Source: Solirubrobacteraceae bacterium (lineage in GTDB: Bacteria; Actinomycetota; Thermoleophilia; Solirubrobacterales; Solirubrobacteraceae). From it: 64,000 nt of DNA. Below the pieces are notes generated by a model. It did not search any database. It saw nothing but the letters and a program-made list of their open reading frames with translations, and was not told the DNA's origin. The translations under genes were made by a program, and so were the position numbers. Shown here one piece after another: positions 1,967 through 12,342 of the stretch. The stretch spans positions 1 through 64,000 of the forward strand of contig JADGPL010000015.1 in assembly GCA_017882455.1 (NCBI GenBank). Direction: 5' to 3'. How positions within the stretch are numbered: position 1 is the stretch's first letter; each line of letters begins with the position of its first letter.

Positions 1967-3205
1967 TCAGAGTCCGAAGACCTCGCGTCCGGCGTTCAGC
2001 GCGCTGACGAGGGCATCGATGTCGGAGGCTTCGTTGTAGACGCCGACCGAGGCGCGTGCCGTGGCGCCGACGCCGAGGCAGCGCATCAAGGGCTGGGCGC
2101 AGTGGTGTCCCGCGCGGATGCAGACCCCGCCGCGATCGGCCAGCTCGGCGACGTCGTGGGGGTGGATGCCCTCGAGCGTGAAGGAGGCCAGGGCGCCGCG
2201 GTGCTCGGCCTCGGGCGGTCCCACCACACGCAGGCCCGGGACCTCGACGAGCCGCTCGAGCATGTAGGCGGTCAGAGCGCGCTCGTGGGCGCGCACGTTC
2301 TCCATGCCGAGGCCCGACAGATACTCGACGGCGACGCCGAGGCCGACGGCCTCGGCGATCGGCGGGGTCCCGGCCTCGAACTTGTAGGGCAGCTCGTTCC
2401 AGCTCGCCGACTGGAAGTCGACCGAGGCGATCATGTCGCCACCCGTCAGGAAGGGCTCCATCTGCTCGAGCAGCTCGCGGCGCCCGTGCAGCACGCCGAC
2501 TCCTGTGGGCCCGAGCGCCTTGTGGCCCGTCCACGCATAGAAGTCCGCCCCGAGGGAGCCCAGATCGACCCCCATCTGCGGCACGGCCTGGGCTCCGTCG
2601 ACGAGCGAGATGGCTCCGGCGGCGCGGATGCGCCGAGTCATCTCCGCCACCGGGTTGATCGTGCCGAGGACGTTTGAGACGTGGGCGAAGGCGACGATGC
2701 GCACGTCGCCGCGAGCCAGCTCGGCGTCGAGTGCCTCCAGCGAGAGCTCACCCCGCTCGTCGACCTCGAGGTAGCGCAGGGTGGCTCCCCGCTCGCGGCA
2801 GAGCACCTGCCAGGGAACGATGTTCGCGTGGTGCTCCATCTGGGTGATCAGCACGGCATCGCCGGCGCCCACGTTGGCGCGGCCCCAGGAGTAGGCGATC
2901 AGGTTGATGGCCTCGGTGACGTTCTTTGTGAAGATCGTCGTCTCCGCTGCAGCGCCCACAAAGGCTGCGACCTTTTGGCGCGCTTCCTCGTAGGCCGCGT
3001 CGGCCTCCTGGGCAAGGGCATAGACGCCACGATGCACGTTCGCGTTATGGCTCTGCAGATGATCTGCGAGCGCGTCGATCACAACCTGGGGCTTCTGCGA
3101 CGTTGCCCCCGAATCGAGGTAGATCAGCTCGCGCCCGTCGAAGCGGCGCGCGAAGATCGGGAAGTCGGCCCTTACCTCAAGCGTTCTCTCAGCGACTGGT
3201 GGCAT
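1967..3205 (-). CDS. sufS: cysteine desulfurase SufS
   Basis: A 412-residue fold-type I PLP enzyme that takes sulfur from cysteine as an enzyme persulfide for cluster assembly. The PLP lysine lies in GHKALGPTGVG (about residue 235) and the catalytic cysteine in RAGHHCAQPLM (near 370), the group II (SufS) arrangement. Its ATG overlaps the end of sufD by 17 bases, so the two are translationally coupled. The partner acceptor SufU follows immediately. Confidence 0.95.
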   Translation of the reverse strand: MPPVAERTLEVRADFPIFARRFDGRELIYLDSGATSQKPQVVIDALADHLQSHNANVHRGVYALAQEADAAYEEARQKVAAFVGAAAETTIFTKNVTEAINLIAYSWGRANVGAGDAVLITQMEHHANIVPWQVLCRERGATLRYLEVDERGELSLEALDAELARGDVRIVAFAHVSNVLGTINPVAEMTRRIRAAGAISLVDGAQAVPQMGVDLGSLGADFYAWTGHKALGPTGVGVLHGRRELLEQMEPFLTGGDMIASVDFQSASWNELPYKFEAGTPPIAEAVGLGVAVEYLSGLGMENVRAHERALTAYMLERLVEVPGLRVVGPPEAEHRGALASFTLEGIHPHDVAELADRGGVCIRAGHHCAQPLMRCLGVGATARASVGVYNEASDIDALVSALNAGREVFGL

Positions 3206-4598
3206 AGGCCTCGATGTCCTCGCGCGCTGCCGCGAGCTTGGCGGCGACCTTGCTGCGGACGACCTCTTCCATCGCCTCGTCTCCGATCTCTGCGACGAGC
3301 GGCTCGAAGAAGCCCTCGACGATCACCCGCACCGCCGCGGGGCGATCGAGGCCACGAGTCTGCATGTAGTAGATCGCGTTCTCGTCGAGCTCTCCGACGG
3401 TGCCCCCGTGCGAGGCTGAGACGTCGTCGGCGGAGACGAGCACCGAGGGGATCGCGTCGATGCGGGCCTTGGGGGAGAGCATCATCGAGTGGAACTGGAG
3501 GTAGGTGTGCGTCTGCTGGGCGCCAGGGTCGATCTGGATCAGCCCCTCGAAGCTCGCGCGGCTCTCGCCGGTGGCGGCTCCACGCCAATGCACATCGCCG
3601 CCTGAGGGGCCGGTCTCGTGGAGGTCGACGGCGAAGACGTCGAGATGCTCGTGCTCCTCGGTGAAGAGCAGCCCGCGGAAGGCCATGTCCCCGCCCTTCT
3701 CCGACACCGCAAGCTCGAGGTGCTGGCGCACCAGGTGCCCGCCCAGGAGGGCCGGAAGCCAGTGGCAGTAGGCGTCGCGACCGACGCCGACGAAGCGGGT
3801 CGAGACGTCGAAGACCTCGCCCGAGCCCCAGTCCTGCAGCTGCGCCAGGCGGCAGCGGGCGCCGTCCTGGAGGTAGAGCTCAAAGGCGCCGGCGTGCAGC
3901 GCCTGGCCCTCGAAGTCCTCGGCCAGGTCGTACTCGTGTACGCGGAACTCGCTGTTGGCGCCGCCGAGCACCAGCGTGCGCCCGAACTGGGCGACCCCGG
4001 GACGCTCGATCGCGTAGACGATCTCGAAGGGCTCTGAGACCGTGACGCCGGCGGGCACATGCAAGAAGGCGCCGGCGCGCCAGAACGCCGCGTTGGCGGC
4101 CTCGAGCTTGTGCCGATCGATCGTCAGGCGCTTGGAGTACCAGGGGCCGACGAGCTCGGGGTGATCACGGAAGGCGTCCTCGAGCGAGCAGAGGATCACG
4201 CCGCGCTCGGCGAGGCCCGGATCGAGCTCGAGGTGCACCGTCTCTCCGGCGCTCTGCACGATGCGCCCGGCCCGCGGACCATCGGGGATCGTGCGGCTCA
4301 CGACCTCGGGCACGCCCTCGGCGCTCGCGGCCGGGTCGAGCGCATCGAGGTCGAGACTCTGAAGGCTCGTCGTCCAGAACCCCGAGCGCCGCCAGATCGG
4401 AAGCTCGGAGGCCTCGTACACATCGAGTGCCGCGGCACGCAGCTGCGCAAGCGTGCGCCCGTCGCCTGCCCCGGCGCCGGCGAGCGCGTGATAGAGGCTC
4501 GCCTCGCGGTGGCGTCCGGCCTTCACCTGGACCGGCGCGGCGCCGTTTGTAGCGCCCGGCAGTGTGTTCGCCGCGTCCTGCTCAGGCACCTTCGTCAC
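3189..4598 (-). CDS. sufD: SufD-type component of the SufBCD scaffold complex
   Basis: About 469 residues from GTG 4598. An ATG at 4643 is also in frame but would overlap sufC by 62 bases, so the inner start is preferred. The protein is a SufB/SufD-family beta-helix. Its C-terminal region carries SADDVSASHGGTVGEL, the SufD-like SHG motif, and lacks the glutamate-containing VEHEATTS motif typical of SufB, so I call it SufD. SufD and SufB form the scaffold with the ATPase SufC. No sufB accompanies it here; it is either encoded elsewhere or replaced by this protein. The gene overlaps both sufC and sufS. Confidence 0.87.
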   Translation of the reverse strand: MTKVPEQDAANTLPGATNGAAPVQVKAGRHREASLYHALAGAGAGDGRTLAQLRAAALDVYEASELPIWRRSGFWTTSLQSLDLDALDPAASAEGVPEVVSRTIPDGPRAGRIVQSAGETVHLELDPGLAERGVILCSLEDAFRDHPELVGPWYSKRLTIDRHKLEAANAAFWRAGAFLHVPAGVTVSEPFEIVYAIERPGVAQFGRTLVLGGANSEFRVHEYDLAEDFEGQALHAGAFELYLQDGARCRLAQLQDWGSGEVFDVSTRFVGVGRDAYCHWLPALLGGHLVRQHLELAVSEKGGDMAFRGLLFTEEHEHLDVFAVDLHETGPSGGDVHWRGAATGESRASFEGLIQIDPGAQQTHTYLQFHSMMLSPKARIDAIPSVLVSADDVSASHGGTVGELDENAIYYMQTRGLDRPAAVRVIVEGFFEPLVAEIGDEAMEEVVRSKVAAKLAAAREDIEAYATSR

Positions 4599-5361
4599 CG
4601 GCTGCGGCGGCGCTCGCGCCAACCTCCTGGCGAATCTGGTCATAGCCCTCGCGCTCGAGGCGCTCGACCAGCTCGACGCCGCCCTCGAGCACGATCCGCC
4701 CCTCCATCAGGATGTGCACGAACTCGGGCTTCACGTAGTGCAGGATGCGCTGGTAGTGGGTGATGATCAGGGCGCCGAGGCCCTGCTCGTCGTGCAGCTT
4801 CTGCACGCCCTCGGCGACGGTACGCAGGGCGTCGATGTCGAGGCCGGAGTCGGTCTCGTCGAGGATCGCGATGTCGGGGGCGAGCATCGCCATCTGCAGG
4901 ATCTCCGCGCGCTTCTTCTCACCGCCGGAGAAGCCATCGTTGAGATGGCGCGAGGTGAAGGCTTTGTCGACGTCGAGCAGCTCGATCGCGTGCTGGAGCT
5001 GGGTGCGGAACTCCTTGACCTGGATCGGCTCATCGCGCTTGGCGTTGATCGCCATGCGCAGGAAGTTCGCGACCGAGACGCCCGGGATCGAGACGGGGTA
5101 CTGGAAGGCCAGGAACAGCCCGGCCTTGGCGCGCTCGTGCGGTTCCTGCTCAGTGATGTCCTCGCCCTTGAAGGTGATCGAGCCCTGGGTGATTTCATAG
5201 GAGGGGTGCCCGAGCAGGGTGTTGGCGAGCGTCGACTTGCCCGAGCCGTTGGGCCCCATCAGGGCATGGATCTCGCCGCGGTTGATCTCGAGGTCGACGC
5301 CGCGCAGGATCTCGCGGTCCTCGGTGCGGACGTGCAGGTCTGTGATCTCTAGGTCGGCCAT
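4582..5361 (-). CDS. sufC: Fe-S cluster assembly ATPase SufC
   Basis: A 259-residue ABC-type ATPase. Walker A is GPNGSGKST (about residue 36), the signature is FSGGEKKRAEI (about 145) and Walker B runs into DETDSGLDIDAL. These are diagnostic of SufC, the soluble ATPase that remodels the SufBD scaffold; there is no transport role. It is the first structural gene after the Rrf2 regulator, with a nine-base gap. Confidence 0.96.
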   Translation of the reverse strand: MADLEITDLHVRTEDREILRGVDLEINRGEIHALMGPNGSGKSTLANTLLGHPSYEITQGSITFKGEDITEQEPHERAKAGLFLAFQYPVSIPGVSVANFLRMAINAKRDEPIQVKEFRTQLQHAIELLDVDKAFTSRHLNDGFSGGEKKRAEILQMAMLAPDIAILDETDSGLDIDALRTVAEGVQKLHDEQGLGALIITHYQRILHYVKPEFVHILMEGRIVLEGGVELVERLEREGYDQIRQEVGASAAAAGDEGA

Positions 5362-5370
5362 ATGCGGTTG

Positions 5371-5856
5371 TCAGGCTCCGGTCGTGAGGGGTTCGATTTG
5401 CAGGGTGGGCAGGACGGCTCCTACGGGCATCGCCGGAGCCAGCAGATCCGCGAGCGTGGTCTCGCGCAGGGTGTTGACGATCGAGAAGCGCACCCGCGTC
5501 CACAGCAGCTTGGTCGGGCAGGCATGCTCGGGACTGGACTCCCGCGAGCACACGATCGAGCCGTCGGCCGCCTCGGAGATGCACTCGATCGGGGCGATTG
5601 AGCCCTCCAGCGCCTCGACGACCTCGGCCATGCTGATCTCGCCCGCCGGGCGCGCCAGCATGTAGCCGCCGCGCGAGCCGCGGCGCGATGTCACGAGGCC
5701 CGCCTTGCGCAGGCGCGCCACGAGGTGCTCGAGGTACGCGAGGGGGAGGCCGTCGTGGGCGGCGATCTCCGCCAGCGGAATCGGCTCCTCGCCAGCTCGC
5801 CGAGCAAGCTCGACCATCACGCGTACGCCGTACTCGGCCTTGGTTGAGAACATCAT
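5371..5856 (-). CDS. Rrf2-family iron-sulfur cluster regulator (IscR/SufR-like)
   Basis: A 161-residue winged-helix regulator of the Rrf2 family (N-terminus FSTKAEYGVRVMVELAR, recognition region SRRGSRGGYMLARP). Three cysteines in ECIS, IVCSRE and EHACPTK (about residues 92-113) have the spacing expected for an Fe-S ligand set, so it probably senses cluster status and controls the suf operon it leads. Two ATGs are adjacent (5856 and 5853). A candidate operator, TTTCCTA-N9-TAGGATA, lies eight bases upstream of the start, which suggests autoregulation. Confidence 0.9.
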   Translation of the reverse strand: MMFSTKAEYGVRVMVELARRAGEEPIPLAEIAAHDGLPLAYLEHLVARLRKAGLVTSRRGSRGGYMLARPAGEISMAEVVEALEGSIAPIECISEAADGSIVCSRESSPEHACPTKLLWTRVRFSIVNTLRETTLADLLAPAMPVGAVLPTLQIEPLTTGA

Positions 5857-6659: not shown

Positions 6660-7841
6660 ATGAGTCCGTCAGGTGCGGAGCTTCTCCGCCAAGTCAAGAG
6701 CCAGATCGAAGAGGTAGACCCGTCTGAGGTCAAGGAGCTGATCGACGAGGGCGTGGCCATCGTGGACGTGCGCGAGACCGAGGAGTTCGCCGCCGGGCAC
6801 CTTCCCGGCGCCAAGCACGTGCCCAGGAGCTATCTCGAGTCGCGGATCGAGGGCGTGGTCCCCGACCGCTCGACTCAGATCATTCTGTACTGCGCCTCGG
6901 GCAACCGCTCGGCATATGGCGCGCGCACGTTGACCGAGGAGCTCGGCTACGAGCACGTGCGCTCGATGACCGGCGGGATCACCCTGTGGAAGGACCGCGG
7001 CTATGACGTCGTGGTCCCACGTGCGCTCAGCCCGGAGCAGCGCGAGCGCTACTCACGCCATGTGCTGATCCCCGAGATCGGCACCGAGGGCCAGCAGAAG
7101 CTGCTCGACGCCAAGGTGCTGCTGCTCGGCGCCGGCGGCCTCGGCTCGCCCACCGCCCTCTATCTGGCAGCCGCCGGGGTGGGCACGCTGGGCATCGTCG
7201 ACGACGACGTGGTGGACCTCTCCAACCTCCAGCGTCAGGTGATCCACTCCACCCAGCGGATCGGCATCCCCAAGGTCGACTCCGCCGAGGAGTCCATCCA
7301 CGCGCTCAACCCCGACGTCAACGTCGTCAAGTACCAGACGCGGATCGACGCCTCCAACATCATGGAGATCATCGAGGGCTACGACGTGATCGTCGACGGG
7401 GTCGACAACTTCCCCACCCGCTACCTGCTCAACGACGCCACCGTGCGCCTGAAGATCCCCGTCGTCTCCGCCTCGATCCTCGGCTTCGACGGGCAGTTGT
7501 CGGTGTTCAAGCCCTACGAGGGCCCATGCTACCGCTGCCTCTTCCGCGAGCCGCCGCCGGCCGAGCTGGCGCCGTCCTGCGGCGCCAACGGCGTACTCGG
7601 CGTGCTCCCCGGCACGATGGGGCTGCTGCAGGCCACCGAGGTCGTCAAGCTCGTGCTGAACATCGGCGAGCCCGCGATCGGACGGCTGCTCCTCTACGAC
7701 GCCCTCGGGGCGACGCTGACCGAGGTGAAGGTCCACCGTGACCCCGACTGCCCGATCTGCTCCCGCGATCCCGAGGACATCGGCGACGAGGAGATGGGCG
7801 TGTTCCCCGATTACGAGGCGTTCTGCGCCGCGGCCGGATAG
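6660..7841 (+). CDS. rhodanese-ThiF/MoeB fusion: sulfur-carrier adenylyl- and sulfurtransferase (MoeZ-like)
   Basis: 393 residues. An N-terminal rhodanese domain (about 18-118, active-site loop YCASGNRS) is followed by a ThiF/MoeB/E1-like adenylylation domain (about 128-390) with GAGGLGSP at about 157, CYRC and CPIC zinc-type pairs, and a SCG motif. Such enzymes adenylate the C-terminal glycine of a ubiquitin-like sulfur carrier and convert it to a thiocarboxylate. The domain order is the reverse of MoeZ/Uba4, where rhodanese is C-terminal. The CysO carrier follows after 26 bases, which makes it the likely substrate. Function in cysteine synthesis is inferred from the CysM and Mec genes further on. 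Confidence 0.9.
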   Translation: MSPSGAELLRQVKSQIEEVDPSEVKELIDEGVAIVDVRETEEFAAGHLPGAKHVPRSYLESRIEGVVPDRSTQIILYCASGNRSAYGARTLTEELGYEHVRSMTGGITLWKDRGYDVVVPRALSPEQRERYSRHVLIPEIGTEGQQKLLDAKVLLLGAGGLGSPTALYLAAAGVGTLGIVDDDVVDLSNLQRQVIHSTQRIGIPKVDSAEESIHALNPDVNVVKYQTRIDASNIMEIIEGYDVIVDGVDNFPTRYLLNDATVRLKIPVVSASILGFDGQLSVFKPYEGPCYRCLFREPPPAELAPSCGANGVLGVLPGTMGLLQATEVVKLVLNIGEPAIGRLLLYDALGATLTEVKVHRDPDCPICSRDPEDIGDEEMGVFPDYEAFCAAAG

Positions 7842-7867: not shown

Positions 7868-8146
7868 ATGGCCACGATCAAGATCCCACCGGTGCTGCGC
7901 GCGTCTGTCGGCGGCGAGAAGCTCCTGAGCGCCTCCGGCGGGAACGTCGGCGAGGTGCTGCGTGACCTCGCCACCAACCATCCCGCCACCGAGAGCCAGC
8001 TGTTCTCCTCCGAGGGCGAGCTCAACCGCTACGTGAACGTGTACCTGAACGACGAGGATGTCCGCGTCCTCGACGGGCTCGACACCACGGTCGGCGAGAG
8101 CGACACGCTGGTCATCCTGCCGGCCATGGCCGGCGGGGCTGGTTAG
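7868..8146 (+). CDS. cysO: CysO-like ubiquitin-fold sulfur carrier with two residues after the GG motif
   Basis: A 92-residue MoaD/ThiS/CysO-family beta-grasp protein (NVYLNDEDVR, then VGESDTLVILPAMAGG near the end). The C-terminus reads AGGAG, so two residues follow the functional diglycine. Mycobacterial CysO ends at GG and needs no trimming. This carrier would need removal of Ala-Gly before adenylylation, a job a JAMM protease could do, and one (Mec) is encoded at 11929. It is cotranscribed with its probable activating enzyme. Confidence 0.88.
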   Translation: MATIKIPPVLRASVGGEKLLSASGGNVGEVLRDLATNHPATESQLFSSEGELNRYVNVYLNDEDVRVLDGLDTTVGESDTLVILPAMAGGAG

Positions 8147-8254: not shown

Positions 8255-8587
8255 ATGACGCCAGGAGAGCTCGTCCGTGAGAATCGACAGCTGCTCGGCC
8301 TGAGCCAGCTCTCCCTTGCGCGTCGCGCGGGCACCACGCAGGCCGCTGTCAGCCGGATTGAGCGGGGATTGACGGCGCCCAGCTGGGAGACGTTGCGCGC
8401 GCTCATGCTCGCGATGGGCTATGAGCCGGATCTGCGGGCACGCCGCCTGAATGGTCGATGGGATCCCGTTCACCTGGCAGCTCTTCGTGGCCGCTCGCCG
8501 GAGGAGCGGCTCGAGCTCTCCGTCTCGGCGAACCGCCTGGCGGGGCGCCTGCGTCAGGCCGGCGCCGAGGTGGGCGTTGGCGCCTGA
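8255..8587 (+). CDS. XRE-family helix-turn-helix protein, likely antitoxin
   Basis: 110 residues with a Cro/C1-type HTH over about residues 4-58 (LGLSQLSLARRAGTTQAAVS, then RIERG) and a charged helical tail. It overlaps the downstream nucleotidyltransferase by 11 bases. A small HTH protein coupled to an AbiEii-like nucleotidyltransferase suggests an autoregulated two-gene toxin-antitoxin or abortive-infection module. It could be a simple regulator instead. Confidence 0.8.
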   Translation: MTPGELVRENRQLLGLSQLSLARRAGTTQAAVSRIERGLTAPSWETLRALMLAMGYEPDLRARRLNGRWDPVHLAALRGRSPEERLELSVSANRLAGRLRQAGAEVGVGA

Positions 8588-9071
8588 CACCCCGCTCGAC
8601 GCCGAGCGTATCCTCGAGACGCTCGCGCAGCACGATGTCGACTATGTGATCGTCGGTGGGCTCGCGGTCCAGACCCACGGCCACGTGCGAACCACGGTCG
8701 ACATCGACGTCTTTCCCCGCCCAGAGCCCGCGAACCTCGCTCGGCTGGCGGATGCGTTGAATGCGCTCGACGCCAGGGTTCTCAATCCGGGCAGCGAGGG
8801 TGTGCCGATAGACGCCAGAACCCTGCCACGGGCGACGTTGTGGCAGTTTGCAACGCGCCACGGTGCGGTGGATGTTCTGCTTGACGCGCCGGGCGCCCCA
8901 CGGTACGGAGATCTCCGCAAGCGCGCGCTTGAGGTCTCGCTCGGAGAGCTGAAGCTCGCAATCGCGGGACGCGACGATCTGATCAGCATGAAGCGCGCCA
9001 GCGGTCGTCCGGTTGACCTCGAAGACATCGCGGCTCTGACCGAGCCCGGTGGCTCGGACGCCGAGCGCTGA
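8577..9071 (+). CDS. AbiEii/MNT-like nucleotidyltransferase, possible toxin
   Basis: About 164 residues from TTG 8577; upstream codons in this frame only shadow the HTH gene. The Pol-beta nucleotidyltransferase core is visible as VIVGGLAVQTHGHVR followed by TTVDIDVF, with the GG turn and two metal-binding aspartates, and a further acidic strand in GAVDVLLD. Such proteins act as TA toxins that modify tRNA or other targets, or as orphan nucleotidyltransferases. The 11-base overlap with the HTH gene supports a module. Start codon and exact family are uncertain. Confidence 0.72.
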   Translation: MAPDTPLDAERILETLAQHDVDYVIVGGLAVQTHGHVRTTVDIDVFPRPEPANLARLADALNALDARVLNPGSEGVPIDARTLPRATLWQFATRHGAVDVLLDAPGAPRYGDLRKRALEVSLGELKLAIAGRDDLISMKRASGRPVDLEDIAALTEPGGSDAER

Positions 9072-9075
9072 GGAG

Positions 9076-10716
9076 TCAGGCGGCGGCGCTCTGGGCGGGC
9101 TCGGTGGCCGCGTCCACTCCGGCCGCCGGCACCTGGCTCATCGCGTGCTCGGCCAGAGCCGTGATCGTCAGCGACGGGTTCACGCCCACGTTGGCCGGGA
9201 TCGCCGAGCCGTCGCACACGAGCAGGTTCTCGTAGCCGAACACACGCTGATCGGCGTCCACGACCCCCTGGCTGGGGTCGGGCGCGATCACGGCCCCGCC
9301 GAGGATGTGCGCGGTCGAGGGGATGTTGAACATCGCCTCCGTGAAGGAGCTCTGGGCGATTCCCCCCGTCCGCTTGGCGAACCATTCTGCCGCTTCGTTG
9401 GCGATCGGGATGAACGTCGGGTTGGGGCGCTCGGGGTCCTGTTCGGTCTGCAGCCAGAAGGATCCGAACGGTCCTTTGCGCGGTCGCAGGGCAATCGCGT
9501 TGTCGAGGGTCTGCATCACCAGGATGATGATCGTGCGCCTGGACCAGTGCTTGGCGAAGAGCACCTGGGCGAGGCGCTTGGGGTGGCGCAGGATCTGCGC
9601 GAGCAGCTTCAGCGGCCGCGTCACGCGCGTGCCATCGCCCGTGAGCAGCGTGTAGAGCATCCGCATCGAGTCGCCGTCATCCCCGTAGGTGACGGTCTCG
9701 ATGTGCGTGTTGGGGTCGGGGTAGATCGAGGAGGTGATCGCCACTCGCTTGATCAACTCGTCGTGGTAGTCCTCGGGCACGGTCACCGTCAGGATCGACT
9801 CGGAGTTCGTGCGCACGAGCTCGCCCAGCCGTGTCGAGATGCGCGGAAGCGAGCCCTCCATGCGGCAGCGCTGCAGCAGCTTGTTGGTGCCCAGCGGACC
9901 GGCGGCCACGATCACGCCGCGGGCGCGCTGAACGCGGCGTTCCTTCTTCAGCCAGGCGCCCGAGCGGACGCTTTCGACCTCATAGCCCTCGCTTCCGTCC
10001 GCCGCGCCCAGGGGGCGGATGTCGACGACCGTGCGTTCGGGCATCACCTGTGCACCGCGCTTCTCGGCGAAGTACAGGTAGTTCTTGACGAGCGTGTTCT
10101 TCGCGCCGTGCACGCAGCCGACCATGCAGCGCCCGCACAGGTGACAGCCCGTCCGGTCGGGGCCCTCGCCGCCGAAGAAGGGGTCCGGCACGGTCTTGCC
10201 CTGCTCGCCGAAATAGATGCCGACCGGCGTGTGTTTGTAGGAGTCGCCCACCCCGAGCTCCTCGCCCAGCTCGCGCAGTAGCTGGTCGGCCGGATCGTCG
10301 TGCGGGTTCTGCACCACGCCGAGCATCCTCTGAGCCTCGGCATAGTGGGGAGCCAGGGCGCTCTCCCAATCCTGCATGTCCGCCCACTGGCGGTCCTCGA
10401 AGAATTTCGTCGGCGGGACGTAGAGCGTGCACGCGTAGCCGAGGCTGCCGCCGCCCACACCACAGCCCGAGACAACCGAGACGTCCTTGAAGGTGGTCAG
10501 GCGGAAGATGCCCTTCAGCCCCAGCCGCGGGTTCCAGAAGTAGCGCTTCAGGTCGGCTGTCGATTTCGCGAACTCGTGGTCGGCGAAGCGCCGCCCGCAC
10601 TCGAGCACGCCGACCGAGTAGCCCTTCTCGGACAGGCGCAGAGCAGAGACGCTGCCGCCGAAGCCCGATCCGATGACCAGCCAGTCGAAGTCGAAATCCT
10701 GCTGCGATGTGGCCAT
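9076..10716 (-). CDS. GMC-family FAD oxidoreductase (cholesterol-oxidase-like)
   Basis: 546 residues from ATG 10716; a TTG at 10737 would add seven. The dinucleotide fold VIGSGFGGSVSALRLSE sits at the N-terminus and VNPSLTITALAEHAM, the GMC C-terminal signature, at the end. A cysteine-rich stretch CHLCGRCMVGCVHG (near residue 195) is shared by a GMC subgroup related to cholesterol oxidases. It probably oxidises a sterol-like or other alcohol; the substrate is not readable. It runs against the cysteine genes and interrupts them. Confidence 0.85.
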   Translation of the reverse strand: MATSQQDFDFDWLVIGSGFGGSVSALRLSEKGYSVGVLECGRRFADHEFAKSTADLKRYFWNPRLGLKGIFRLTTFKDVSVVSGCGVGGGSLGYACTLYVPPTKFFEDRQWADMQDWESALAPHYAEAQRMLGVVQNPHDDPADQLLRELGEELGVGDSYKHTPVGIYFGEQGKTVPDPFFGGEGPDRTGCHLCGRCMVGCVHGAKNTLVKNYLYFAEKRGAQVMPERTVVDIRPLGAADGSEGYEVESVRSGAWLKKERRVQRARGVIVAAGPLGTNKLLQRCRMEGSLPRISTRLGELVRTNSESILTVTVPEDYHDELIKRVAITSSIYPDPNTHIETVTYGDDGDSMRMLYTLLTGDGTRVTRPLKLLAQILRHPKRLAQVLFAKHWSRRTIIILVMQTLDNAIALRPRKGPFGSFWLQTEQDPERPNPTFIPIANEAAEWFAKRTGGIAQSSFTEAMFNIPSTAHILGGAVIAPDPSQGVVDADQRVFGYENLLVCDGSAIPANVGVNPSLTITALAEHAMSQVPAAGVDAATEPAQSAAA

Positions 10717-10903
10717 GGCTTTGACAAGCCCCCTCAAGCTCGATTGGAAACGCCGAAGTCGATCTTAGTGGCTGACTGGCCAGGCAGCCAACTCTGTGCG
10801 AGGCGCTCCGTGCGGGTCCAGGCGCCATCGATTGCTCATCTCCGGCTCCATCGGTCGACTGGGAGTCGGTCTCCAGTGACTCGCCACCCCCCAACGACCC
10901 CGC

Positions 10904-10919: not shown

Positions 10920-11891
10920 ATGGCGGCGGAGCGGCTCAGAAACCGGCCCTGCGGAGGTCGCTATGGCGACATCGTGCAGTCGATCGGCAACACGCCGCTG
11001 GTCGAGCTGCCGAACCTCTCGCCCAAGCCCGGCGTGCGCATCTGGGCCAAGCTCGAGTCGCGCAACCCCACCGGCTCTGTCAAGGATCGCGTGGCCCGTG
11101 CGTTGATCGAGGACGCGGAGGAGAAAGGCGCGATCGCGCCGGGACAGACCATCCTGGAACCGACCTCCGGCAACACGGGCATCTCGCTGGCGCTGATCTG
11201 CAAACTCAAGGGCTACCGGCTGAAGGTGGTCATGCCCGAGAACGTCACGCCCGAGCGCACCCAGCTGCTGAGCATGTACGGCGCCGAGATCGTCTACTCG
11301 CCCGGCGATCAGGGCTCCAATGGCGCAGTGGCCATGGCGCTCGAGATGGCCTCCGCGGACCCCTCCTGCTACATGCCCTACCAGTACGGAAACCAGGCCA
11401 ACCCCAATGCCCACTACAACGGCACCGCGGTGGAGATCCTGGAAGAGCTCGACGAGGTCGCCGCGTTCGTGGCCGGGCTGGGGACGGGCGGCACGCTGAT
11501 GGGCAACGGTCGAAGGCTGAAGGAGACGTTCGGCGACGCCGTCAAGATCGTCGCCGCCGAGCCCATGCAGGGCGAGCCCGTGCAGGGCCTGCGCTCGCTG
11601 GACGACGGCTTCATCCCGCCGATCATCGACATCTCCCTGCTCGACCGCAAGATCTTCGTGACCAACCACGACGCGATCGTGTGGACGCGCAAGCTGCTCG
11701 ACGAGGAGGGTCTCTTCGCCGGCGTCTCGACCGGCGCGATAGCGAGCATCGCCGTGCGGATCGCCGGCGAGCTGGAGGAGGGCAACGTCGTCTTCGTCGT
11801 CGCCGACGACGGCTGGAAGTACCTGTCGAGCGGCATCTACACGCTGCCGGTCGAGGAGGTCGAGAACCTCGAGTCGACCGTCTGGTGGTGA
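10920..11891 (+). CDS. cysM: O-phosphoserine-type cysteine synthase CysM
   Basis: A 323-residue fold-type II PLP enzyme. The PLP lysine is in NPTGSVKDR (about residue 53), the substrate loop is EPTSGNTG and the phosphate-binding loop is GLGTGGT. An arginine in QGLRSLDDGF matches the position used by mycobacterial CysM to bind O-phosphoserine. CysM takes sulfur from CysO thiocarboxylate to make a CysO-cysteine adduct. Mec, which releases the cysteine, follows 37 bases on, as in the mycobacterial cluster. An ordinary OAS sulfhydrylase is less likely given this context. Confidence 0.9.
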   Translation: MAAERLRNRPCGGRYGDIVQSIGNTPLVELPNLSPKPGVRIWAKLESRNPTGSVKDRVARALIEDAEEKGAIAPGQTILEPTSGNTGISLALICKLKGYRLKVVMPENVTPERTQLLSMYGAEIVYSPGDQGSNGAVAMALEMASADPSCYMPYQYGNQANPNAHYNGTAVEILEELDEVAAFVAGLGTGGTLMGNGRRLKETFGDAVKIVAAEPMQGEPVQGLRSLDDGFIPPIIDISLLDRKIFVTNHDAIVWTRKLLDEEGLFAGVSTGAIASIAVRIAGELEEGNVVFVVADDGWKYLSSGIYTLPVEEVENLESTVWW

Positions 11892-11928: not shown

Positions 11929-12342
11929 ATGATCATCGCCGCTGCCCTGCTGGAGGACATCGTCGCCCACGCCCGCGAGGAGTACGACGCCGAGTGCTGC
12001 GGCCTGCTCGCCTACGCATCGCTCGAGCCCGACGGCAGGGGAGACGTGCGCGCCGTTCATCGCGCCACCAACATCTTCGCCAGCCGCAAGCGCTTCGAGA
12101 TCGACGGCAAAGAGGTCCTGACGACGATGGACGAGTTCGAGGGCGAGGGCTGGGAGCTGGGCGCGATCTATCACTCCCACACCCACACCGCCCCATACCC
12201 CTCGCAGACCGACATCAACTTCGCGGCCAACTGGCCCGGCCTGGAGTGGGTGATCGTGGGCCTGGCCGGCGAGGAGCCGGAGATCCGCTGCTACCTGATC
12301 GACGCCGGCGAGGTGCGGGAGGTCGCACTCCAGGTGCGCTGA
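11929..12342 (+). CDS. mec: Mec-type JAMM/MPN+ zinc metallohydrolase
   Basis: 137 residues. The JAMM zinc motif is complete: a glutamate near residue 23, then HSHTHTAPYPSQTD (HxHx7SxxD, about 84-97). In actinobacteria Mec hydrolyses the CysO-cysteine adduct to free cysteine and regenerate CysO. Here the carrier has two residues past GG, so Mec may also trim the precursor, as QbsD does for QbsE. The stop codon overlaps the next ATG by one base. Confidence 0.88.
   Translation: MIIAAALLEDIVAHAREEYDAECCGLLAYASLEPDGRGDVRAVHRATNIFASRKRFEIDGKEVLTTMDEFEGEGWELGAIYHSHTHTAPYPSQTDINFAANWPGLEWVIVGLAGEEPEIRCYLIDAGEVREVALQVR

What the first reader, a model, noticed from the sequence alone, without database searches (positions are those of the whole stretch)
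7868..8146. CysO carrier with Ala-Gly beyond the diglycine
The carrier ends in AGGAG. Activation at GG requires removal of two residues. The JAMM hydrolase Mec, known for releasing cysteine from CysO, is the obvious candidate, which would give it a second role in carrier maturation like QbsD on QbsE.
Basis: partly seen in the sequence, partly recalled or inferred. Interest (0 to 1): 0.62.

Follow-up and report, generated by a model that had tools for sequence, protein, structure and literature searches.

The report
Cysteine sulfur carrier with removable tail
A small protein that carries sulfur for making cysteine is encoded with two extra residues that hide its working end; the same kind of throw-away tail is common across actinobacteria, and the partner enzyme Mec, already known to cut at exactly this spot, very probably trims it, as relatives of Mec do in known systems.

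Summary
Window 7868-8146 (+) encodes a 92-aa CysO ending ILPAMAGG-AG, with an E1 (rhodanese-MoeB) upstream, CysM at 10920 and an intact JAMM enzyme (Mec) at 11929.

It is not an oddity. In 193 non-redundant CysO genes from Actinomycetota the GG is invariant, and 157 carry 1-53 extra, poorly conserved residues. ThiS in the same family ends exactly at GG in 30 of 30 sampled genomes. A thrC-linked paralog ends at GG in 31 of 39; this genome's own copy does too.

Tails bear the footprint of a scissile bond: proline is never the first residue (0/157, against 14% of codons just downstream and about 12% at the third and fourth positions). Six CysO genes encode GG-Cys exactly, the same sequence as the CysO-cysteine adduct that Mec is known to hydrolyse.

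Mec is the only Prok-JAB protein found in this genome and in 122 of 138 family genomes with one. PtmS2 looks like CysO. Direct biochemistry on this pair is missing.

The parts
7868..8137 (+). CysO carrier domain, residues 1-90, ending in the diglycine (Gly89-Gly90) that is adenylated and thiocarboxylated
   Evidence: translation; Pfam ThiS 48.3 bits; aligns to M. tuberculosis CysO 3dwg_C to its last residue
8138..8143 (+). C-terminal cap Ala91-Gly92, predicted to be removed; scissile bond Gly90-Ala91
   Evidence: variable and dispensable in relatives
6660..7841 (+). E1-like activating enzyme: N-terminal rhodanese plus MoeB/ThiF domain (the CysO-activating MoeZ equivalent)
   Evidence: Pfam ThiF 275 bits and Rhodanese 75 bits; NF006444 564.7 bits, cut-off 449
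10920..11891 (+). cysteine synthase of the CysK/CysM family (putative CysM, acceptor of the CysO thiocarboxylate)
   Evidence: PALP 243 bits; TIGR01136 cysKM 337.6 bits, just under the cut-off of 344.15
11929..12342 (+). Mec, JAMM metallo-hydrolase; catalytic residues Glu22, His82, His84, Ser92, Asp95 (codons at 11992, 12172, 12178, 12202, 12211)
   Evidence: Prok-JAB 72.6 bits; these residues invariant in 27 homologs; predicted fold (pLDDT 97) matches P. furiosus JAMM1 Z 21.1 and its SAMP2 complex Z 20.9
8255..8587 (+). HTH protein inserted between cysO and cysM (not part of the mechanism)
   Evidence: HTH_3 48.5 bits
8580..9071 (+). nucleotidyltransferase DUF6036, likely paired with the HTH gene (not part of the mechanism)
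   Evidence: DUF6036 36.7 bits, cut-off 23.6

Best explanation
The gene encodes an inactive CysO precursor. The JAMM hydrolase Mec cuts after Gly90, removing Ala-Gly and exposing the diglycine carboxylate. The rhodanese-MoeB protein then adenylates and thiocarboxylates it, CysM attaches it to an amino-acrylate from O-phosphoserine to give CysO-GG-Cys, and Mec cuts the same Gly-X bond again to release cysteine and recycle the carrier. Maturation and product release would be one chemical reaction on two substrates. Because Mec tolerates almost any residue except proline after GG, the stop codon has drifted freely, which is why the tail is short, variable and often absent. Shown here: the sequences, the distribution, the missing P1' proline, the intact JAMM. 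From the literature: Mec hydrolyses CysO-Cys; JAMMs free capped or fused carriers. Inferred: that Mec itself trims this CysO.
For: (1) Conserved core, free tail: across 193 CysO genes the GG is invariant (AGG, SGG once), while 157 tails span 1-53 aa with at least 125 changes of the tail string on the tree. (2) Same-family controls: ThiS exact GG 30/30; thrC-linked paralog capped 8/39 against CysO 157/193, Fisher p 5e-13, not corrected for kinship. (3) Scissile-bond footprint: proline at P1' 0/157, P2' 4/105, P3' 5/41, P4' 4/33; 136/957 codons after the stop are Pro, p 5e-10. Allowing for kinship (at least 72 changes of P1' state), the chance of no Pro is about 1e-5 at 14% and 0.002 at the 8% seen at P2' onward. 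(4) MoaD-MoaE fusions in the family show the same P1' set (A15 S7 E5 G1, no Pro among 28). (5) Six CysO genes encode GG-Cys and stop. (6) Mec: 71/71 near-complete family genomes; sole Prok-JAB in this genome and in 122 of 138 (counted by hand); co-occurs with CysO over the phylum (both 160, only one 10+10, neither 116; counted by hand); catalytic residues invariant. (7) Published: Mec hydrolyses CysO-Cys (PMC3227635); deleting the JAMM gene ptmS1 stops use of capped carriers in Streptomyces (PMC6006322); HvJAMM1 cuts a SAMP1-MoaE fusion exactly after the last Gly (PMC4443979).
Against: No assay of this Mec on this precursor. A tail-bearing CysO occurs in one 97%-complete genome (G432) where no Prok-JAB was found, so another protease, or a missing contig, is possible there. 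Two further CysO-bearing genomes (G361, G433) gave no JAB and two only weak ones. The proline test assumes tails are otherwise near random; a single stop-codon mutation cannot give Pro (nor Ala, yet Ala is the commonest), which could explain part of the deficit, and at the P2' proline rate (3.8%) the kinship-corrected chance is only 0.06. Tail presence does not track Mec presence, since Mec is nearly constant.
Confidence: 0.82

Rival explanations
1. A different protease or a general carboxypeptidase trims the tail; Mec acts only on CysO-Cys.
For: One tail-bearing genome (G432) shows no Prok-JAB. Most tails are 1-2 residues, within reach of an exopeptidase.
Against: Tails reach 53 residues and contain internal prolines, unlike good exopeptidase substrates, and an exopeptidase would need a reason to stop at GG. 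No other peptidase was seen between the E1 gene and Mec. In Streptomyces, removal of the JAMM gene alone blocks use of capped carriers (PMC6006322).
Confidence: 0.12
2. The tail is not removed and the protein works with it, or works without a thiocarboxylate.
For: The tail is present in the gene; no mass spectrum is available.
Against: Adenylation and thiocarboxylation occur at the terminal Gly carboxylate (PMC3227635). The GG is invariant although buried behind the tail, and proline is excluded just after it, which a retained tail would not need.
Confidence: 0.03
3. Mec trims the tail, but the cap is more than drift: it is a regulatory or safety feature that keeps new CysO inactive until it meets Mec, so that carrier supply is tied to Mec level.
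For: Caps are kept in 157 of 193 CysO genes although a one-codon change would remove them.
Against: Cap sequence and length are hardly conserved and caps come and go (at least 21 changes of presence on the tree), as expected of drift. Mycobacterial CysO has none.
Confidence: 0.12

Closest known systems
CysO-Mec-CysM pathway of Mycobacterium tuberculosis
   Same: Same set: carrier, E1 with rhodanese, cysteine synthase, JAMM hydrolase; CysO 80 bits to 3dwg_C
   Different: M. tuberculosis CysO ends exactly at GG; here there is a two-residue cap. The rhodanese domain is N-terminal in the E1 here, C-terminal in MoeZR (PMC3227635). The genes are spread over 5.7 kb with unrelated genes between.
PtmS1 (JAMM) with capped carriers PtmS2 (GG-MV) and PtmS3 (GG-C), Streptomyces platensis (PMC6006322)
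   Same: Carrier with a short cap after GG, clustered with a JAMM; JAMM gene needed in vivo. PtmS2 has 90 residues to GG and cap MV; a genome here (L315) has a CysO of 90 residues plus MV next to CysM and Mec, so PtmS2 is probably CysO and PtmS1 probably Mec (inference)
QbsE-QbsD (thioquinolobactin, Pseudomonas)
   Same: Sulfur carrier with residues after GG, removed by a JAMM protease (cited in PMC6006322; details from my own knowledge)
   Different: Siderophore pathway; dedicated protease with, as far as I know, no product-release role
HvJAMM1 with SAMP1-MoaE and DRJAMM with MoaD-MoaE (PMC4443979, PMC8832034)
   Same: JAMM cuts a linear fusion after the carrier's last Gly and so activates it
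   Different: The removed part is a folded partner protein, not a short tail
HcyS-HcyD (Wolinella succinogenes, from memory)
   Same: Carrier with a residue after GG removed by a metalloprotease
   Different: Homocysteine rather than cysteine pathway; not checked here, paper not held

Membership tests
CysO sulfur carrier | beta-grasp ThiS/MoaD-type protein similar to CysO | tested here: met
   Pfam ThiS 48.3 bits; 3dwg_C E 8.8e-22
CysO sulfur carrier | diglycine available at the C terminus of the mature protein | tested here: inconclusive
   GG present but followed by AG in the gene; maturation not observable here
CysO sulfur carrier | genes for E1/rhodanese, CysM and Mec nearby | tested here: met
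   in 80 relatives
CysO sulfur carrier | thiocarboxylated by its E1 and used by CysM with O-phosphoserine | not testable with these tools
   needs biochemistry
Mec / JAMM hydrolase | JAMM motif E, HxH, x7, S, x2, D | tested here: met
   Glu22, His82, His84, Ser92, Asp95 invariant in 27; HxHx7SxxD in 202 of 202 complete homologs
Mec / JAMM hydrolase | JAMM fold | tested here: met
   pLDDT 97; PfJAMM1 Z 21.1, rmsd 1.5 over 126 residues
Mec / JAMM hydrolase | hydrolyses CysO-Cys and CysO precursor after GG | not testable with these tools
   needs enzyme assay
JAMM-processed capped carriers (QbsE/QbsD, PtmS2/PtmS1 type) | carrier with extra residues after GG plus a co-encoded JAMM | tested here: met
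   phylum-wide
JAMM-processed capped carriers (QbsE/QbsD, PtmS2/PtmS1 type) | the JAMM removes the cap | not testable with these tools
   indirect support only: absence of P1' proline

The most novel reading that the evidence does not exclude
In these actinobacteria one Mec enzyme is a general maturation and release hydrolase for the ubiquitin-like sulfur carriers other than ThiS: it uncaps CysO, releases cysteine from CysO-Cys, splits MoaD-MoaE fusions and uncaps the occasional thrC-linked carrier. Its only strict rule is no proline after GG. Some species even encode CysO as GG-Cys, so the first product of translation equals the pathway's last intermediate and every new carrier molecule would yield one free cysteine.
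Probability: 0.5. Interest if true: 0.55.

Novelty: new member of a known kind. Interest (0 to 1): 0.42.

Why it matters
CysO and Mec are known mainly from M. tuberculosis, whose CysO ends exactly at GG, so Mec is described only as the enzyme that releases cysteine. The survey shows that the mycobacterial form is the minority: most actinobacterial CysO genes sampled need a trimming step first. That would make Mec essential at two points of one pathway, warns against expressing full-length CysO in vitro and finding it dead, and gives a specificity rule (no proline after GG) that a simple assay can test. It also suggests that the Streptomyces proteins PtmS1 and PtmS2 are the ordinary cysteine-pathway Mec and CysO.

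Tried and rejected
Frameshift or sequencing artefact: rejected, since relatives with different codons share or replace the tail. Tail as a conserved functional peptide: rejected, no conservation. Tail presence versus Mec presence as a test inside the family: uninformative, Mec is nearly universal. MoaD as an uncapped control: unsuitable, 28 of 30 sampled family MoaD genes are MoaD-MoaE fusions, one runs off its contig and one ends at GG; it became supporting evidence instead. First-pass exact-GG counts in the phylum mixed CysO with the thrC-linked paralog; genes were reclassified by neighbourhood, and the two types part on one branch of the tree. Godert 2007 (QbsD/QbsE) is not held. Rfam and tRNA scans of the window gave nothing.

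Full report
WHAT IS THERE. The ORF 7868-8146 (+) gives a 92-residue protein ending ILPAMAGGAG. It is a ThiS-family protein and its best solved relative is M. tuberculosis CysO, aligned up to that protein's last glycine. Upstream lies a rhodanese-MoeB fusion (6660-7841), downstream a cysteine synthase (10920-11891) and a Prok-JAB protein, Mec (11929-12342), all on the same strand. An HTH/DUF6036 gene pair and a cholesterol-oxidase-like gene on the other strand stand between cysO and cysM.

HOW COMMON IS THE TAIL. I collected CysO genes from 80 named contigs of Solirubrobacterales and relatives and from whole genomes of the family and the phylum (with regions). After removing duplicates, and classifying by neighbouring genes, 193 CysO genes remain: 157 with 1-53 residues after GG and 36 ending exactly at GG. 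The GG is invariant (preceded by Ala, once by Ser); the tails are A, R, AR, SR, C, MA, GR, AG and dozens of others. On a tree of the cores the presence of a tail changes at least 21 times and the tail string at least 125 times. The closest relatives of the window end in SR (95% identical) and AG with other codons (91%).

CONTROLS. In the same family, ThiS, whose pathway has no JAMM partner, ends exactly at GG in 30 of 30 sampled genomes. A second CysO-like carrier, encoded beside threonine synthase, ends at GG in 31 of 39 cases, this genome's copy included; it forms a group apart from CysO. So the tail belongs mainly to the carrier that has its own JAMM enzyme.

A FOOTPRINT OF CLEAVAGE. If the bond after GG must be cut, the next residue should obey the enzyme. 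It does: none of 157 tails begins with proline, although 136 of 957 sense codons directly after the stop encode proline and proline makes up 4 of 105, 5 of 41 and 4 of 33 residues at the second, third and fourth positions. Ala, Arg, Ser, Cys, Gly and Met dominate; Asp, Asn, Lys and aromatics are absent. Corrected for kinship by counting at least 72 changes of state, the chance of no proline is about 1e-5 at 14% and 0.002 at 8%, but 0.06 at the 3.8% seen in the second position. One reservation is that Pro cannot arise from a stop codon in one step; but neither can Ala, the commonest. The MoaD-MoaE fusions of the family, in which a JAMM cut would be needed between carrier and enzyme, have the same kind of first residue after GG (A, S, E, G; no Pro in 28).

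THE ENZYME. Mec has the JAMM residues Glu22, His82, His84, Ser92 and Asp95, invariant in 27 homologs, and its predicted structure (pLDDT 97) matches Pyrococcus JAMM1, free and bound to the ubiquitin-like SAMP2 (Z 21.1 and 20.9). It is the only Prok-JAB protein over the cut-off in this genome and in 122 of the 138 family genomes with a match (counted by hand). All 71 near-complete family genomes have it. Over 296 phylum genomes CysO and Mec are found together in 160, one without the other in 10 and 10, neither in 116 (counted by hand); five of the ten CysO-only genomes do have a JAB over the cut-off on a more sensitive search.

CHEMISTRY. M. tuberculosis Mec hydrolyses the CysO-cysteine adduct (PMC3227635). 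After the shift to an amide (from my own knowledge) that adduct is CysO-Gly-Gly-Cys, in sequence a CysO with a one-residue tail. Six CysO genes here encode exactly that, one in the complete genome of Conexibacter sp. S30A1 (L034). For those species the known Mec reaction is the maturation reaction. Removing Ala-Gly differs only in the leaving residues.

LITERATURE. Iyer et al. 2006 (PMC1779556) noted JAB enzymes beside cysteine synthase and ThiS/MoaD genes and foresaw JAB cleavage that frees carrier C termini in fusions. Dong et al. 2018 (PMC6006322) described capped carriers PtmS2 (GG-MV) and PtmS3 (GG-C) and showed that deleting the JAMM gene ptmS1 abolishes thioplatensimycin and thioplatencin; deleting ptmS2 alone did not, which they put down to redundancy. 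PtmS2 has the length and cap of the Streptomyces-type CysO found here next to CysM and Mec. HvJAMM1 and DRJAMM cut carrier-MoaE fusions at the last glycine (PMC4443979, PMC8832034). What this work adds is the extent across the phylum, the same-family controls, the P1' rule and the encoded GG-Cys forms.

LIMITS. Nothing here shows Mec acting on this protein. One tail-bearing genome (G432, 97% complete) lacks any detected JAB. Many genomes are metagenome bins. Genes were classified by neighbourhood, and a few without informative neighbours were left out.

Noticed in passing
L386-L415 (Solirubrobacteraceae MoaD loci): 28 of 30 sampled MoaD genes of the family are MoaD-MoaE fusions, the type that needs a JAMM cut to become active; the residue after GG is A, S, E or G, never Pro. 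The window's own genome shows no moaD match.
   Followed up: partly
G000 C2:76331-76603 (-), L006 4829-5104: A second CysO-like carrier ends exactly at AGG directly behind threonine synthase; the pairing is conserved in the family and elsewhere in the phylum, function unknown to me.
   Followed up: partly
window 6660-7841: The E1 has its rhodanese domain at the N terminus (PRK08762 type), the reverse of mycobacterial MoeZR.
   Followed up: no
window 8255-9071: HTH plus DUF6036 nucleotidyltransferase pair, possibly a toxin-antitoxin-like cassette, sits between cysO and cysM; the cysO-cysM gap varies widely between relatives.
   Followed up: no
window 9076-10737 (-): Cholesterol-oxidase-like GMC oxidoreductase (636 bits to NF058674, below its cut-off of 850) between cysO and cysM.
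   Followed up: no
window 1967-5856 (-): Genes that look like sufS, sufD, sufC and an Rrf2-type regulator (read from the translations, not searched) lie just upstream, so sulfur mobilisation and the CysO genes are neighbours.
   Followed up: no
L308, L340: Two CysO tails of about 41 residues contain repeated short segments (SEHAPRHLSAGGA; SGGLMPSPPAARG), as if the tail grew by tandem duplication.
   Followed up: no
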